From a virus, in IMG/VR virus record IMGVR_UViG_3300020172_003813, positions 1 to 23,939 of that record: DNA of 23,939 nt, one strand, 5' to 3'. Of the stretch, positions 6,355-15,242 are shown one piece after another; position 1 is the stretch's first letter; every line of letters begins with the position of its first letter. The translations under genes were made by a program, and so were the position numbers. Below the pieces are notes generated by a model. It was not told where the DNA came from and made no database searches. It saw only the letters and a list, made by a program, of their open reading frames with translations.

Positions 6355-7887
6355 ATGACCGACATAACCCGGTTCAAAGCGATTTTTTCCGGCCTGGATA
6401 TCGCTTATGGAACATACAAAATTGAGTCGTCCCGAGGAGACGGGAAACAGGCAGGCAAGGCCGTTGTGGTGCGCAAGCCACCAACTGACGACCTGTGGAT
6501 CAAGCACCTGGAAGGCGTTGAACCGAGTCTGGGAATTATCCCAATCCGGGCAGATAACTCCTGCATCTGGGGCTGTATTGACATTGACCAGTATCCACTG
6601 GACCACGTCGGCCTCATAAAAAAGGTCAGGAGCCTTGAACTCCCCATGGTGGTGTGCCGTAGCAAGTCCGGCGGGGCACACGTGTTCTTGTTTGTCCAAT
6701 CGCCCATTCCTGCTGCAGAGATGCAGCGGTTTCTCAACGCCTGTGCCGCTTTGCTGGGCGAGGCCGGCCGGGAGATTTTTCCCAAGCAAGCTGCAATCCT
6801 GGTGGACCGCGGCGACACGGGCAACTTTCTCAACCTGCCTTATTTTGGCGGAGACCAGACAACGCGCTACGCCATCAGGGACGATGGTTCGGCCGCAACA
6901 CTGGAGGAGTTTTATGCCCTGTACGACCAGTGGGTACAGCCCCCAGACCTCAAGTACCCAGAAGAGCCCAAGGAGCCTGACCATCCCATCAAGGACGGCC
7001 CTCCCTGCCTGCAGGCGCTGTGCGCCCAGGGCGTGCCAGAAGGCACCCGCAACAACGCCCTGTTCAACATTGGCATCTACCTCAAGAAGGTGATTCCCAT
7101 CCACTGGGATGACGCCATGGTGGAGCACAACCTGAAGTACGTCTCACCCCCGCTGCCCAACAATGAACTGCAAGTCCTCGTCAAGCAGCTGAGTAAAAAA
7201 GACTACAAATACAAGTGCAAGGACGCGCCATTACACAGCTTTTGCAACAGCGGCCTTTGCAGGACTCGCAAGCATGGGATCGGGGCTCACGGACCAGACT
7301 CCCCGCAAATGTCCTCTCTGTCCAAGTACAACTCCGAGCCGCCGCTGTGGTTTCTCGACATCAACGGCAAACGCATTGAACTCGACACCGAGAGCCTGTT
7401 TGTACAGGCCTCATTCCAGAAGGCCTGCGTTGAAAAAATCAACCTGTTGCCGCCCACACTGCGTAAGCAGGACTGGGAGCAGATGCTCAATGCACTGCTC
7501 AAGGAAATGGTGGAGACTGAGCAGATTACCGAGGCCAGCGAAGACACCAGCATCACCGGCCGCTTCAACGACCTGCTTGAAGAGTTCTGCACGCACCTGC
7601 AACAGGCAATGGACCGTGATGAAATCCTCATGGGCCGCCCATGGACGGATGAAAATGAGGCCAAGACCTACTTCCGCATGAAGGACTTGGATGCGCACCT
7701 GGTGCGCAACAACTTCAAGGGCATGACTGCACCAAAGATGGCGCAGCGCCTGCGGGATCAGGGCGGGGAACCCATCAGCCTCTTCCTCAAGAACCGCGCT
7801 GCACGTTGCTGGAAAATCCCACGCTTTAGCCGCCAAGACGCCCCATTTGACACGCCAGAGCAGCGCACTAACCGGAGCCCATTTTGA
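6355..7887 (+). CDS. Archaeo-eukaryotic-type primase (TOTE-like AEP), probable replication primase
   Basis: A 510-residue primase of the AEP superfamily, expected to make primers on ssDNA for the polymerase encoded downstream. The catalytic acidic pair is CIDIDQY with Asp76 and Asp78. The second motif is SKSGGAHVFLF (103-113) with the conserved His109, followed by FPKQ (142-145) and GNFLNLPYF (156-164), all features of the AEP domain seen in TOTE conflict systems and phage primases. A helical PriCT-like region follows (about 220-290), ending in a Cys/His cluster at about 286-305 (CKDAPLHSFCNSGLC) that may bind zinc. The last 150 residues are helical with no motif I know. No fused helicase domain is present, so unwinding must come from another protein. 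The stop overlaps the next start as TGATG. Confidence 0.85.
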   Translation: MTDITRFKAIFSGLDIAYGTYKIESSRGDGKQAGKAVVVRKPPTDDLWIKHLEGVEPSLGIIPIRADNSCIWGCIDIDQYPLDHVGLIKKVRSLELPMVVCRSKSGGAHVFLFVQSPIPAAEMQRFLNACAALLGEAGREIFPKQAAILVDRGDTGNFLNLPYFGGDQTTRYAIRDDGSAATLEEFYALYDQWVQPPDLKYPEEPKEPDHPIKDGPPCLQALCAQGVPEGTRNNALFNIGIYLKKVIPIHWDDAMVEHNLKYVSPPLPNNELQVLVKQLSKKDYKYKCKDAPLHSFCNSGLCRTRKHGIGAHGPDSPQMSSLSKYNSEPPLWFLDINGKRIELDTESLFVQASFQKACVEKINLLPPTLRKQDWEQMLNALLKEMVETEQITEASEDTSITGRFNDLLEEFCTHLQQAMDRDEILMGRPWTDENEAKTYFRMKDLDAHLVRNNFKGMTAPKMAQRLRDQGGEPISLFLKNRAARCWKIPRFSRQDAPFDTPEQRTNRSPF

Positions 7888-8132
7888 TGTTAAAAATTGA
7901 CGGACATGACGACGCGATCCTCGGCCCTGCTTGCATATGGCGGGGCTCCAGCCGGGTAGATGTGCTGGTGTACGACGCCGAGCTTATCCGTGAAAATTTA
8001 ATGCGTGATGGCATGACCAGTGAAGATGCACGCGAGTTCATTGAGTTCAACATTGAATGCGCCTATGTCGGGGAGGACACCCCCGTCCTTGTTTGGACAC
8101 AGGACATGTGGGATGAAGGGGAAGAGGAATGA
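7887..8132 (+). CDS. Small conserved phage protein, unknown function
   Basis: An 81-residue acidic protein (ATG at 7887, overlapping the primase stop; CGGAG about 11 bases upstream). The motif sequence YDAELIRENLMRDGMTSEDA, then EFIEFNIECAYVGEDTPVLVW, belongs to a small phage family I recognise from many unrelated tailed phages but whose function is unknown. It lies between primase and UvrD-like helicase genes with overlaps on both sides (TGATG and ATGA), so its amount is tied to theirs. The acidic C-terminus ends DEGEEE. Confidence 0.75.
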   Translation: MLKIDGHDDAILGPACIWRGSSRVDVLVYDAELIRENLMRDGMTSEDAREFIEFNIECAYVGEDTPVLVWTQDMWDEGEEE

Positions 8133-12024: not shown

Positions 12025-12217
12025 AGTACTCCCGGCTATGCAAGTGGAGGACACGGAATTGCCCGCGCTGCTGGACATCACCAAGGTTCTGTTGACCGTC
12101 AAGGGCCCGAGCGGCAAGCCCCGCCAGGTGGACATCACCAAGACGCTGACTGAGGAGCAGATCATGCTGCTTGAGGATGAGATCATGGAAAACTACAGTG
12201 AAAATCCTGCGCTTTGA
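11978..12217 (+). CDS. Small protein of unknown function
   Basis: A 79-residue protein starting at ATG 11978 (CAGAAAG about 6 bases upstream), overlapping the AT-hook gene by 47 bases in another frame. ATG 11996 is an alternative start. It looks beta-strand rich (ELTFEVLPAM, LLDITKVLLTVKG, RQVDITKTL) and ends in an acidic helix (TEEQIMLLEDEIMENY). I recognise no family. It overlaps the following acetyltransferase-like gene by 20 bases, so the three genes form a translated chain. Confidence 0.6.
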   Translation: MKYLTEMAFPVELTFEVLPAMQVEDTELPALLDITKVLLTVKGPSGKPRQVDITKTLTEEQIMLLEDEIMENYSENPAL

Positions 12218-12638
12218 ACGCAACGACGAGGCCGTAGCCTGGGCCAAAAAAGTCATCGGCATCGACGGCATGACGGGGGACGTCACCACCGTGAGCCTGG
12301 TAGACGACAAGGAGGAGTTCTTGGCCGTCACCGTCTTCTCTGCCCACACAGGCACCAACATTGACATGCACATCGCCGCGCGGCCCCGGAGTAATTGGTT
12401 CTCGCGCAGGTTCTTTAAAGCATCCTTTGAGTTGCCCTTTCTCGTGCTCCAAGTACCGCGGGTCACGGGTCTCATCCGCGCAGAGAACTCGGACGCCCAG
12501 CGCTTTGTCTCTCGCCTGGGCTTTCAGTACGAAGGACGCATGCGCAAGGCCTTCCCAGATGGCGGAGACTTGACACTGTACAGCCTGCTGAGAGAGGAGT
12601 ACTTGAAGCATCCCTGGAATAAAAATAAAATTATTTAA
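12198..12638 (+). CDS. GNAT-like acetyltransferase domain protein
   Basis: A 146-residue protein if started at GTG 12198, where GGAA lies 8 bases upstream and the product begins VKILRFERNDEAV, as I would expect for this type. TTG 12171 and ATG 12177 are in-frame alternatives. The C-terminal part, VTGLIRAENSDAQRFVSRLG then FQYEGRMRKAF, resembles the end of GNAT folds, where the Asn and the helix after it contact the acetyl-CoA pantetheine and the GF(x)EG turn follows. The N-terminal part fits the early GNAT strands. Many phages carry such proteins; substrates are unknown. The 3' end is AT-rich and overlaps the upstream element of the next promoter. Confidence 0.68.
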   Translation: MKILRFERNDEAVAWAKKVIGIDGMTGDVTTVSLVDDKEEFLAVTVFSAHTGTNIDMHIAARPRSNWFSRRFFKASFELPFLVLQVPRVTGLIRAENSDAQRFVSRLGFQYEGRMRKAFPDGGDLTLYSLLREEYLKHPWNKNKII

Positions 12639-12708
12639 AAAAGTTGTTGACAGTTGATATAGCCGTGCTAAGATCGGATTGCAATCACAGAAAGAGAGAA
12701 AGACTGCC
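12618..12708 (+). promoter_or_regulatory. Sigma70-like promoter with UP-like A/T tract and palindromic leader
   Basis: TTGACA (12647-12652), a 16-base spacer and TAAGAT (12669-12674) form a strong promoter. A 26-base almost pure A/T tract (12618-12643) lies just upstream, where the RNA polymerase alpha C-terminal domain would bind an UP element. The palindrome GATTGCAATC (12677-12686) spans the expected +1. The leader ends with CAGAAAGAGAGAAAG before ATG 12709, the purine-rich site shared by several units here. Confidence 0.75.
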
Positions 12709-12963: not shown

Positions 12964-13454
12964 GAAAGCGCAGCAGCTACCGCCCGCGGGCCGTGCTCCA
13001 GAATCCCCTGGAGTTTGTCCTGTCAGGGTTGCGCCCCTTGCGGGATGTGCCGGGCGTTTTCCTGGACCTGCAACTCAAGAACCGCGCAGCGCTGGAAGAG
13101 GTCCGGCGCGGGCGGGCCACCAAGGCAGACATTGACACCCTTGTTGGTGCCTTCAACATTGCGGAGGCGCTGGCCCTCAAGGGTCTTGGATGCGACTGGC
13201 TGGAAGAAATCAATGCCGCCCAAACTGCTCTGCTTGAGCTGGTGCGCCGGGGCATTGAACGAGAAATGAGGTTCATCATGACCGCGAAGCAGTGGGAGGC
13301 ACTGAAGCTGGTGATGGACCTGCATGAGGAGCAGCTGGCTAACGCCACTGTTCTGGACATCGAGAAGGCGCACGACTTTGTTGAGGCGGTTATCCGCCAA
13401 GGCAAGGCCCGTGCAATTGTTCAACTGAACGCCCAAAGGAAACCACATGACTAA
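12960..13454 (+). CDS. Conserved phage protein of unknown function
   Basis: A 164-residue protein starting in an ATGA overlap with the membrane protein gene. The beginning RKRSSYRPRAVLQNPLEFVL, then LRPLRDVPGVFLDLQLKNRA and RGRATKADIDTLVGAFNIAE, matches a family I recall from many phages of Betaproteobacteria and Pseudomonas, always labelled hypothetical. The N-terminus is strongly basic and the rest all-helical. No catalytic motif is seen. It overlaps the next gene by 8 bases. Confidence 0.75.
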   Translation: MRKRSSYRPRAVLQNPLEFVLSGLRPLRDVPGVFLDLQLKNRAALEEVRRGRATKADIDTLVGAFNIAEALALKGLGCDWLEEINAAQTALLELVRRGIEREMRFIMTAKQWEALKLVMDLHEEQLANATVLDIEKAHDFVEAVIRQGKARAIVQLNAQRKPHD

Positions 13455-13983
13455 ATCTGATCAAATCCGCGAACATTTTCGCAACCACCCAAACGCCAGA
13501 GTGCCGGAGGTGGTGGAAAAATTTAAAGCCTCCAGGCCCATGGTGTACAAGCTGCACAAGGAGATTAAAGCGGAGCTGCCTGATACGGTGCCAATGCCGA
13601 CCGCAGAGCACGAGGCAACGTCCCGGGCTTCCTCCCTGATAAGCAGGTCCAAGCTCACAGACAAGCAGCGCAAGGAGCGCGCAGCGAAGTACTTCCCAGA
13701 CGCTGCAAAAGTCAGTGTGGGCAAGGTATTGGAGGCGCGTGGCCAGGACTACGGCAAGTTCCGGGACAGCGCCGCGCTGATGCAGGGCATCAAACGGCTA
13801 CTCGCGGACCACGCAGCACGGCACAACAAGCTGTTTGCTGATGACCAGTGGGAGGCCTTGGAGATGATCGTCCACAAGATCAGCCGCATCGTCAACGGCA
13901 ACCCCGACAAAGTTGACCACTGGGTGGACATTGCAGGCTACGCCACCCTGGTGGCCGACCGCCTTGAAGGCATTGATCGTTAA
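13447..13983 (+). CDS. HTH plus DUF6378 (MazG-like) protein
   Basis: A 178-residue two-part protein (AAAGGAAACCAC before ATG 13447). Residues about 1-42 resemble a winged or simple helix-turn-helix (DQIREHFRNHPNARVPEVVE then a recognition-like helix SRPMVYKLHKEIK). Residues about 90-175 resemble DUF6378, a MazG-like all-helical fold: RGQDYGKFRD (98-107), EALE with Glu136 and Glu139, KISRIVNG (144-151) and DHWVDIAGY with Asp157 and Asp161. The Glu/Asp set would bind the metal in an NTP pyrophosphohydrolase. Phage MazG-like enzymes may lower alarmone or modified-nucleotide levels; here that is inference. The fused HTH part is unusual for such a small protein. Confidence 0.7.
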   Translation: MTKSDQIREHFRNHPNARVPEVVEKFKASRPMVYKLHKEIKAELPDTVPMPTAEHEATSRASSLISRSKLTDKQRKERAAKYFPDAAKVSVGKVLEARGQDYGKFRDSAALMQGIKRLLADHAARHNKLFADDQWEALEMIVHKISRIVNGNPDKVDHWVDIAGYATLVADRLEGIDR

Positions 13984-14045: not shown

Positions 14046-14363
14046 ATGAAGAAAATTATTGGAGCCACGAAGGCCTGGTTGCCCGAGTACAGCCGCCTGA
14101 GCCCTGAGGACATGCAGGGCGACAAGGCGGTTGAATCGCTGGCGTTCTGCTCCGCCGACATGCGGACAAGCGGCTGGACCTACGTAGGCGAGGCCACCAT
14201 CACGGTGGACATGCTCTTGACGCCTAACGAGCTGGTTGCCAGCAAGATCGAGACCTTGAAGACGCAACAGGCAAAGGTGCGTGTGGAGGCTCAGGAAAAG
14301 CTCAACCGGCTGGAGGACATGATCCAGAACCTCCTGGCCATCACCTACGTGGGGGAGTCATGA
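14046..14363 (+). CDS. Conserved coiled-coil phage protein, unknown function
   Basis: A 105-residue protein; ATG 14046 follows AAAGAAAGTGAGAAAGTC, the purine-rich site type of this phage. The N-terminal part (IIGATKAWLPEYSRLSPEDM, then FCSADMRTSGWTYVGEATIT) matches a small phage family I recall without known function. Residues about 62-98 form a coiled coil (ASKIETLKTQQAKVRVEAQE and on). It starts a run of genes linked by ATGA overlaps, and overlaps the next tiny gene by four bases. Confidence 0.75.
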   Translation: MKKIIGATKAWLPEYSRLSPEDMQGDKAVESLAFCSADMRTSGWTYVGEATITVDMLLTPNELVASKIETLKTQQAKVRVEAQEKLNRLEDMIQNLLAITYVGES

Positions 14364-14482
14364 TTTCGGCCTGCAGCCGCTGTTCATGGCCCTTTCCTAC
14401 CGGGCCGCTGCCCCCGTATCAAGGCCCACGGACCCCAAGCGGGCCGGTGTATCCCGCTGATGCGGAGGAGGCACCGCTATGA
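14360..14482 (+). CDS. Possible 40-residue proline-rich protein
   Basis: An open frame fills the gap between two genes and overlaps both by ATGA (14360-14363 and 14479-14482). The 40-residue product is Pro/Gly-rich (PFPTGPLPPYQGPRTPSGPV) with Cys5 and Cys8. No homologue is known to me. The double coupling supports a gene, but low complexity and GC-rich sequence could produce this by chance; it may only serve to carry ribosomes to the next start. Confidence 0.4.
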   Translation: MISACSRCSWPFPTGPLPPYQGPRTPSGPVYPADAEEAPL

Positions 14483-14925
14483 ACGTCTGGACAATTACGT
14501 GGCGCTGGGCCGATGGCAGCGGTTCGGGGATCGTGCCTTTCGGGTTCACGGACAAGAAAGTAGCCGAGGTGTCTGTGCAGGTTTTGCAGCAAGAGGGCAG
14601 CAAAATATATGAGCTGGGGGATTTGACGCTGGTGGACACATTGGGAATATTGCCGAAGCCCTTGGCCAGGATAGGGGAGACGGAGGTGTATCTCGACCGC
14701 CAGGTGCCTCACTACGGGGCAACGGGCAAAACACCATTTGAGCCCAACGCCTTGCCGCTGCGTCTGCTTAATGCACTGTATGCTGAGGACATCACGGCGC
14801 TAGAGCACGTGGTGTGCTGGACAGAGTGGCAGTTGCTGAAAATCCCGAACTTGGGCCGCAAGTCGATTGATGAGCTAAAGAGCTACTTGCACAGCAAGGG
14901 CCTGGCATTGAAGGAGAAAGCATGA
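14479..14925 (+). CDS. Phage protein with RNA polymerase alpha-subunit C-terminal-domain-like module
   Basis: A 148-residue protein with a very strong ribosome-binding site (GGAGGAGG). Residues 92-146 read as an alpha-CTD: LLNALYAEDITALEHVV, then WQLLKIPNLGRKSIDELKSY, then HSKGLALKE. Against E. coli RpoA from memory it aligns without gaps at offset 170. The DNA-contact residues Arg265, Asn268, Gly296, Lys298, Ser299 and Glu302 match Arg95, Asn98, Gly126, Lys128, Ser129 and Glu132; only Cys269 differs (Ala99). The sigma-contact residues near 259-261 are not kept. The first 80 residues (including VAEVSVQVLQQEGSKIYELG) are not recognised. It may bind UP-type DNA or alpha partners and so redirect host RNA polymerase. 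A general helix-hairpin-helix DNA-binding role is the alternative. Confidence 0.8.
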   Translation: MNVWTITWRWADGSGSGIVPFGFTDKKVAEVSVQVLQQEGSKIYELGDLTLVDTLGILPKPLARIGETEVYLDRQVPHYGATGKTPFEPNALPLRLLNALYAEDITALEHVVCWTEWQLLKIPNLGRKSIDELKSYLHSKGLALKEKA

Positions 14926-15242
14926 GCATGAACACGCCGTTCCACATAAGGCAGCGTGAGTTCAACGACTTCAACGCCGGCAACCCGCTGGTGTGGGAAT
15001 ACTTTGAACGCTTCACGCTCCAGGCCGTCAACGCCGGCCACAGGAAGATCAGCCATTGGCTCATCATCAACCGCATCCGCTGGGAAGTGGTGATGACCAC
15101 CACGGGCGCGGACTTCAAGATTTGCAACAACTTCATTGCGTTCTACGCGCGCTTGTTCGTCAAAGTGCATCCGCAGTACCGCTTCATCTTCAACCTCAAG
15201 CGCATGGAAGACGAGCCATGGCACGAGGACATGCCGTTATGA
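14922..15242 (+). CDS. Conserved phage protein of unknown function
   Basis: A 106-residue protein (AAGGAGAAAGC before ATG 14922; ATGA overlap with the alpha-CTD-like gene). FNAGNPLVWEYFERFTLQAV, GHRKISHWLIINRIRWEV and FKICNNFIAFYARLFVKVHP form a pattern I recall from many phage and prophage proteins in the replication or early region, all of unknown function. It is aromatic-rich, basic in the middle, and acidic at the end (EDEPWHED). A nucleic-acid role is possible because of the basic helix but is not shown. Confidence 0.72.
   Translation: MSMNTPFHIRQREFNDFNAGNPLVWEYFERFTLQAVNAGHRKISHWLIINRIRWEVVMTTTGADFKICNNFIAFYARLFVKVHPQYRFIFNLKRMEDEPWHEDMPL

What the first reader, a model, noticed from the sequence alone, without database searches (positions are those of the whole stretch)
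14479..14925. Phage protein carrying a near-complete RNA polymerase alpha-CTD with the DNA-contact residues kept
Residues 92-146 align without gaps to E. coli RpoA (offset 170, from memory). Arg265, Asn268, Gly296, Lys298, Ser299 and Glu302, the UP-element contacts, are all present (Arg95, Asn98, Gly126, Lys128, Ser129, Glu132); only Cys269 is Ala. The sigma-contact residues and the alpha N-terminal domain are missing, and an unknown 80-residue domain takes its place. A protein that can hold UP-element DNA but cannot assemble polymerase could compete with host alpha-CTD, or tether another factor to promoters. It has one of the best ribosome-binding sites in the window, and the phage's own 12647 promoter has an A/T-rich UP-like tract.
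Basis: partly seen in the sequence, partly recalled or inferred. Interest (0 to 1): 0.82.

Follow-up and report, generated by a model that had tools for sequence, protein, structure and literature searches.

The report
Phage protein with borrowed polymerase alpha-CTD
A small protein of a freshwater phage ends in the DNA-gripping domain of the host RNA polymerase alpha subunit; many unrelated phages have fused this same domain to other small proteins, so it looks like a reusable DNA-binding part for meddling with host transcription, though nobody appears to have tested that.

Summary
The 148-aa ORF at 14479-14925 carries an RNA polymerase alpha-CTD over residues 92-146 (Pfam PF03118, E=6e-10; best structural and sequence matches are all RpoA). 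Arg265, Asn268, Gly296, Lys298, Ser299 and Glu302 are kept, Cys269 is Ala, the sigma-facing 261 determinant is lost, and there is no alpha N-terminal domain. Residues 1-87 match no family or fold.

Five full-length relatives exist, all in uncultured phage contigs (59-74% identity), under purifying selection (pairwise dN/dS 0.10-0.32). The five core DNA contacts are invariant; Glu302 is Ala in one relative. The nearest isolate, DSL-LC04, lacks the gene.

It is not a one-off. One scan of viral contigs gave 76 loci with alpha-CTDs, none a full RpoA, joined to some 25 different partner segments. Related phages carry the same partner gene with and without the domain. Across these proteins Arg265, Asn268, Cys269 and Glu302 are kept far more than other polar positions (p about 0.001-0.002).

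Most likely it is an A/T-DNA-binding accessory protein acting in trans at UP-element promoters. That step is inference. The kind is already annotated in databases; the architecture here is new and I found no experimental study.

The parts
14479..14925 (+). 148-aa protein gene: unknown N-terminal domain + RNA polymerase alpha-CTD
   Evidence: full-length relatives in 5 viral contigs; pairwise dN/dS 0.10-0.32
14479..14739 (+). N-terminal domain, residues 1-87, predicted beta-beta-alpha-beta plus further strands; no known family or fold
14752..14916 (+). alpha-CTD module, residues 92-146, aligning without gaps to E. coli RpoA 262-316; DNA contacts Arg95, Asn98, Gly126, Lys128, Ser129, Glu132
   Evidence: PF03118 E=6e-10; PDB sequence hits; Foldseek to 1lb2_E TM 0.83, rmsd 1.6
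14464..14471 (+). Shine-Dalgarno-like GGAGGAGG, 7 nt before the ATG
12647..12674 (+). sigma70 extended -10 promoter (TTGACA-16-TAAGAT with TGC) at the head of the co-directional gene run that includes the alpha-CTD gene
   Evidence: core conserved in L001 at 2992
12618..12646 (+). 93% A+T UP-like tract (12 of 15 specified UP-consensus positions in register, 13 of 15 when shifted by 1-2 nt); overlaps the 3' end of the upstream gene; not conserved in L001
12960..13983 (+). two upstream genes of the same accessory block, conserved in L001 and G002; the second carries DUF6378 and an HTH-like N-terminus by eye
14046..14363 (+). gene immediately upstream, 105 aa, unknown
14922..15242 (+). gene overlapping the 3' end of the alpha-CTD gene, 106 aa, unknown; overlap suggests translational coupling

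Best explanation
The gene is a phage accessory protein made by fusing a captured RNA polymerase alpha-CTD to a small phage-specific N-terminal domain. SHOWN: the alpha-CTD identity, absence of the alpha-NTD, retention of the DNA-contact face and loss of the sigma-contact face, purifying selection, and recurrence of the same module in many unrelated phage proteins. INFERRED: the module binds the minor groove of A/T-rich DNA as host alpha-CTD does, in trans and without assembling polymerase; at UP-element promoters (host rRNA promoters, possibly the phage's own early promoter) it competes with or substitutes for the polymerase's own alpha-CTDs and so shifts host RNA polymerase between promoters. 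The N-terminal domain probably supplies oligomerisation or a second partner. The related complete genome DSL-LC04 has no annotated RNA polymerase, so such a phage would depend on host polymerase throughout infection, which makes a polymerase/promoter modulator sensible.
For: Domain: PF03118 E=6e-10; all significant PDB sequence hits are RpoA, profile E=1.6e-11 to Francisella alpha1; Foldseek matches to alpha-CTD in DNA or regulator complexes (1lb2_E TMt 0.83 rmsd 1.6; 1z3e_B 0.85; 9zum). DNA face: Arg95, Asn98, Gly126, Lys128, Ser129 invariant in six members. Across phage alpha-CTDs, with the positions fixed by the search pattern excluded, R265 (0.90-0.95), E302 (about 0.8), C269 (0.73-0.83) and N268 (0.60-0.81) against a mean of about 0.3 for other polar sites, p=0.001-0.002, while the 261 determinant is 0.19-0.35 and residue 287 about 0.05. 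Selection: dN/dS 0.10-0.32 overall, C-domain 0.07-0.20. Recurrence and detachability. No annotated RNAP in DSL-LC04. Precedent that phages target this interface: T4 Alt/ModA modify alpha Arg265 (PMC2988021); LUZ19 Rac causes the alpha-CTD to be cut from polymerase (PMC7552054).
Against: No binding or expression data. The N-terminal domain is of unknown fold and could carry the real function, with the alpha-CTD only an anchor. The UP-like tract at the phage's own promoter is not conserved in L001. The gene is absent from the nearest isolate phage, so it is dispensable in the lineage. Some phage alpha-CTDs have lost Lys298 (His or Phe in L022-L024), so DNA binding need not be universal. The window module is among the more diverged ones (39 bits against 49-80 for most others).
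Confidence: 0.5

Rival explanations
1. The alpha-CTD is a general-purpose A/T-DNA anchor, and the protein's activity lies in the N-terminal domain (for example a nucleoid-associated, replication or anti-defence function) and has nothing to do with promoters.
For: Alpha-CTDs are fused to some 25 unrelated partner segments, at either end or inserted in the middle, which fits an all-purpose anchor. In L021, L022 and L024 the fusion gene lies directly upstream of polA.
Against: Several phage alpha-CTD fusions carry sigma region 4, pointing to promoter work for at least some of them. PADLOC finds no defence-system match.
Confidence: 0.23
2. Protein decoy: the module mimics host alpha-CTD to sequester host activators or inhibitors that bind alpha-CTD (CRP, Fis and Spx types) rather than binding DNA.
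For: Thr285 and Glu286 of the 287 determinant are kept in the window protein; the fold matches alpha-CTD bound to Spx and CAP.
Against: Val287 and Glu288 are replaced by Trp and Gln, and this face is poorly kept across phage alpha-CTDs while the DNA face is well kept.
Confidence: 0.1
3. Tether or adaptor: the N-terminal domain binds host polymerase or a phage factor and the alpha-CTD docks it on phage promoters with A/T upstream tracts, activating them.
For: The 12647 promoter has the best UP-consensus match in the window (13 of 15, only 2 of about 47,800 positions), and its core is conserved in L001. Sigma4-alphaCTD fusions exist in other phages.
Against: The UP tract is not conserved in L001; no polymerase-binding motif is known in the N-domain.
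Confidence: 0.12
4. Neutral mosaic passenger: small phage accessory proteins shuffle modules, and this fusion has no consistent function.
For: The same N-modules occur with and without alpha-CTD in related phages; the gene is absent from DSL-LC04.
Against: Purifying selection on both domains and selective retention of the DNA-contact face.
Confidence: 0.05

Closest known systems
Bacterial RpoA alpha-CTD (PF03118), best matches in sampled Betaproteobacteria and E. coli
   Same: Fold, gapless alignment, 265 determinant kept
   Different: No alpha-NTD; Cys269Ala, Lys271Tyr; 261 determinant lost; 287 determinant half lost; 43-48% identity
[quoted passage not shown]
   Same: Small phage proteins with an alpha-CTD
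   Different: Only the CTD is matched (64-77 alignment columns of the 148-aa query in the best uncultured-phage rows); function unknown there too
Bacillus phage vB_BmeM-Goe8 QDP42789 'RNA polymerase subunit alpha' (210 aa)
   Same: Phage protein with an unrelated N-domain plus alpha-CTD, PF03118 E=4e-22; a homologue in SBSphiC lacks the CTD
   Different: Different N-terminal domain; Herelleviridae
Erythrobacter phage vB_EliS-L02 ORF40
   Different: Known from the paper text only; sequence not compared here
T4 Alt/ModA and LUZ19 Rac
   Same: Phage strategies acting on the host alpha-CTD/UP-element interface
   Different: ADP-ribosyltransferases and an acetyltransferase-like protein, not alpha-CTD look-alikes

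Membership tests
PF03118 RNA_pol_A_CTD domain | Match above the curated cut-off | tested here: met
   39.1 bits against 23.8, E=6e-10
PF03118 RNA_pol_A_CTD domain | Alpha-CTD fold rather than a generic HhH | tested here: met
   Top Foldseek PDB hits are RpoA chains or alpha-CTD; no other HhH family in the top 50. Model pLDDT about 77-87 over most of the domain
PF03118 RNA_pol_A_CTD domain | 265-determinant DNA-contact residues | tested here: met
   All kept except Cys269Ala; Glu302 is not invariant in the family
PF03118 RNA_pol_A_CTD domain | Binding to UP-element DNA | not testable with these tools
   Needs gel shift or footprinting
RNA polymerase alpha subunit (RpoA) | Alpha-NTD for dimerisation and beta/beta' assembly | tested here: not met
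   148 aa only; NCBIfam rpoA models score 23-38 bits against cut-offs of 228-523; no NTD family found
RNA polymerase alpha subunit (RpoA) | Sigma-contact 261 determinant (258, 259, 261) | tested here: not met
   Glu, Pro, Ala in the window protein
Phage alpha-CTD accessory proteins | Small phage protein with alpha-CTD fused to a non-RpoA segment, in a phage genome | tested here: met
   phage context from DNA polymerase, terminase small subunit and Pam3 gp33-like neighbours
Known anti-phage defence families | PADLOC model match | tested here: not met
   No match

The most novel reading that the evidence does not exclude
Phages repeatedly capture host alpha-CTD and shuffle it as a plug-in minor-groove A/T reader, including fusions to sigma region 4-like domains, building their own promoter-recognition proteins that bypass polymerase assembly and rewire UP-element use; the window protein is one member with a new effector domain.
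Probability: 0.3. Interest if true: 0.75.

Novelty: new variant of a known kind. Interest (0 to 1): 0.5.

Why it matters
The alpha-CTD/UP-element contact drives the strongest host promoters, and known phages attack it with enzymes. Proteins that simply reuse the domain would be a second, common and untested route to the same interface. The repeated fusion to unrelated partners, with the DNA face kept and the sigma face lost, makes a clear and cheap test possible: does a free alpha-CTD module change UP-dependent transcription in a cell?

Tried and rejected
Full RpoA or contamination: rejected; no NTD, phage neighbourhood, phage-only full-length relatives. Generic HhH: rejected. Hits in INPHARED to 'phage' records OR84/OR85 and MT83: the two MT83 records read (MT835508, MT836419) hold a ribosomal-protein operon with full rpoA, that is bacterial DNA, so these hits were set aside. 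Searches for the N-domain alone in viral contigs, phages, PHROGs, Pfam and PDB found nothing beyond the family. GTDB genomes hold no full-length relative by the pattern scan. Tree of 59 alpha-CTD columns: phage modules are scattered among bacterial RpoA rather than forming one clade, but supports are weak, so multiple captures are only suggested. Rfam and tRNA scans of the window: nothing.

Full report
OBSERVATION. The ORF 14479-14925 is real, 148 aa. Residues 92-138 match Pfam PF03118 with E=6.1e-10, 39.1 bits against a curated cut-off of 23.8, and nothing else in Pfam matches. NCBIfam rpoA models hit the same stretch but far below their cut-offs, as expected for a lone C-terminal domain. Every significant PDB sequence match is an RpoA. 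AlphaFold2 on six family members gave mean pLDDT 74 and pTM 0.45, so the relative placement of the two domains is not reliable, but the C-terminal domain is at about 77-87 in the well-aligned stretch, and Foldseek places it on alpha-CTDs solved with DNA, CAP or Spx (TM by target 0.83-0.85, rmsd 1.4-1.6 A). Residue 269 is Ala, 271 is Tyr, and the 261 determinant is Glu, Pro, Ala in place of Asp, Asp, Glu at 258, 259 and 261.

FAMILY. Full-length relatives were found in only five IMG/VR contigs, at 74, 62, 59, 59 and 59% identity; the last three have identical coding sequence over the 435 bases compared although they come from different metagenome records. None was found in GTDB genomes, INPHARED phages or plasmids (where annotated hits are rpoA). 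Arg95, Asn98, Gly126, Lys128 and Ser129 are invariant; Glu132 is Ala in L001. Pairwise dN/dS (Nei-Gojobori) is 0.10-0.32 for the whole gene and 0.07-0.20 for the C-domain, so both halves are under purifying selection; synonymous distances are large in some pairs and the ratios are rough.

PHAGE. Genes along the window match phage DSL-LC04, a 61.5-kb lake phage, and G002, a 61.5-kb uncultured relative. Its DNA polymerase is 77% identical to DSL-LC04's. DSL-LC04 has no PF03118 match and no annotated RNA polymerase. The alpha-CTD gene lies in the small-gene accessory block after the DNA polymerase, next to genes conserved in L001 and G002; in G002 the block is on the opposite strand.

PROMOTER. 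TTGACA-16-TAAGAT with an extended -10 at 12647 is the head of the co-directional run containing the gene. Its core is conserved in L001 while much of the flanking sequence is not. The tract 12618-12646 is 93% A+T and gives the best match to the UP consensus in the window (13 of 15 specified positions at a 1-2 nt shift, 12 of 15 in register; two places of about 47,800 score 13; the consensus itself is from memory). L001 scores only 3-8 of 15, and part of the window's tract is the coding end of the gene 12171-12638. So the promoter is supported, its UP element only in this genome.

THE DOMAIN IS A SHUFFLED PHAGE MODULE. A single scan of viral contigs with an alpha-CTD alignment returned 76 loci; in none is the ORF a full RpoA (lengths 83-265 aa, a few cut by contig ends). 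Together with other scans I compared 73 phage proteins, 72 of which my alpha-CTD profile detected; Mycobacterium phage Zenteno07 gp68 fell below it. Clustering their non-CTD parts gave about 25 unrelated segments: a helical phage module (LRDxxA...AYxxADxMLxxR) in the largest group, sigma70 region-4-like HTH domains (Pfam PF04545 E about 1e-8 in the same chain as PF03118), beta-rich pieces and coiled coils by eye, and C-terminal extensions. The alpha-CTD sits at the C-terminus, at the N-terminus (L088, L102, L110) or inside another module (L087), by reading the sequences. In one lineage the same partner gene, after the same roughly 81-aa upstream neighbour, is found with the alpha-CTD (L033) and without it (L034, L035). 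The L024 partner module likewise occurs without it in L034-L036. In Herelleviridae, Goe8 has the domain and its SBSphiC homologue does not. Database names show the kind is already annotated, and one isolate paper lists such an ORF without study (PMC9127768). My literature searches found no experimental work, within an open-access library only.

DNA FACE KEPT, SIGMA FACE LOST. The 76-locus scan used a pattern covering E. coli positions 292-300, so those columns were excluded from testing. Using only loci from that scan, R265 is kept in 0.90-0.94, E302 in 0.81, C269 in 0.74-0.83 and N268 in 0.60-0.71, against a mean of 0.31-0.32 for 22 other polar positions; one-sided Mann-Whitney p=0.001-0.002 (with all proteins). 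Positions 258, 259 and 261 are at 0.19-0.35 and 287 at about 0.05. Columns are not independent and sampling is uneven, so the p-value is indicative. A subset (L022-L024) has lost Lys298.

MECHANISM. Host alpha-CTD binds A/T-rich upstream DNA through Arg265 and Asn268 (PMC11434276), and phages are known to act on this contact: T4 ADP-ribosylates Arg265 (PMC2988021) and LUZ19 Rac leads to cleavage of the alpha-CTD from polymerase (PMC7552054). A free alpha-CTD that keeps the DNA face but lacks the NTD and the sigma face would be expected to occupy UP-like DNA without bringing polymerase. I therefore favour competition or substitution at UP-type promoters, with the N-terminal domain adding oligomerisation or a second contact; this is inference. 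Rivals are a plain A/T anchor for an unrelated N-domain activity, a promoter adaptor, and a decoy for host activators.

VERDICT. The protein is a new architecture within an already annotated but uncharacterised kind. The wider pattern of repeated capture and shuffling, including sigma4-alphaCTD fusions, is more interesting than the single gene.

Noticed in passing
L121, L123, L124, L125 (183 aa) and L066 (235 aa); L065 similar by eye: Phage proteins joining a sigma70 region-4-like HTH to an alpha-CTD (PF04545 about 1e-8 plus PF03118 in the same chain for L121 and L066); the L121 protein also has a Mor-like C-terminal HTH. They may be phage-made promoter-recognition hybrids.
   Followed up: partly
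L087/L091 (153 aa) and L110 (144 aa): The alpha-CTD is inserted inside the helical DYFA/AYxMADAMLxAR phage module, or placed before it, showing the order is freely shuffled.
   Followed up: partly
window 12618-12674 and L001 2967-3019: Core of an extended -10 sigma70 promoter is conserved between two phages while its A/T-rich upstream tract is not.
   Followed up: yes
window 7884-8132: 82-aa protein whose DSL-LC04 homologue is annotated 'RNA polymerase sigma-G factor'; Pfam finds no sigma domain, so the annotation looks doubtful.
   Followed up: partly
INPHARED records MT835508, MT836419 (read); OR844994, OR846589, OR847224, OR848276, OR849874, OR851339 and other MT83 records (hits only): The two records read hold ribosomal-protein operons with full-length rpoA, that is bacterial DNA in 'phage' records; the others look likely to be the same from their RpoA hits.
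   Followed up: partly
window 13447-13983: Neighbouring gene with DUF6378 at its C-terminus and an HTH-like N-terminus by eye, conserved in the same accessory block; a possible regulator.
   Followed up: no
L034 1964-2146 and 2384-2569; L035 4363-4551: Tandem small genes that are free-standing copies of the N-modules found fused to alpha-CTD in L024 and L030.
   Followed up: partly
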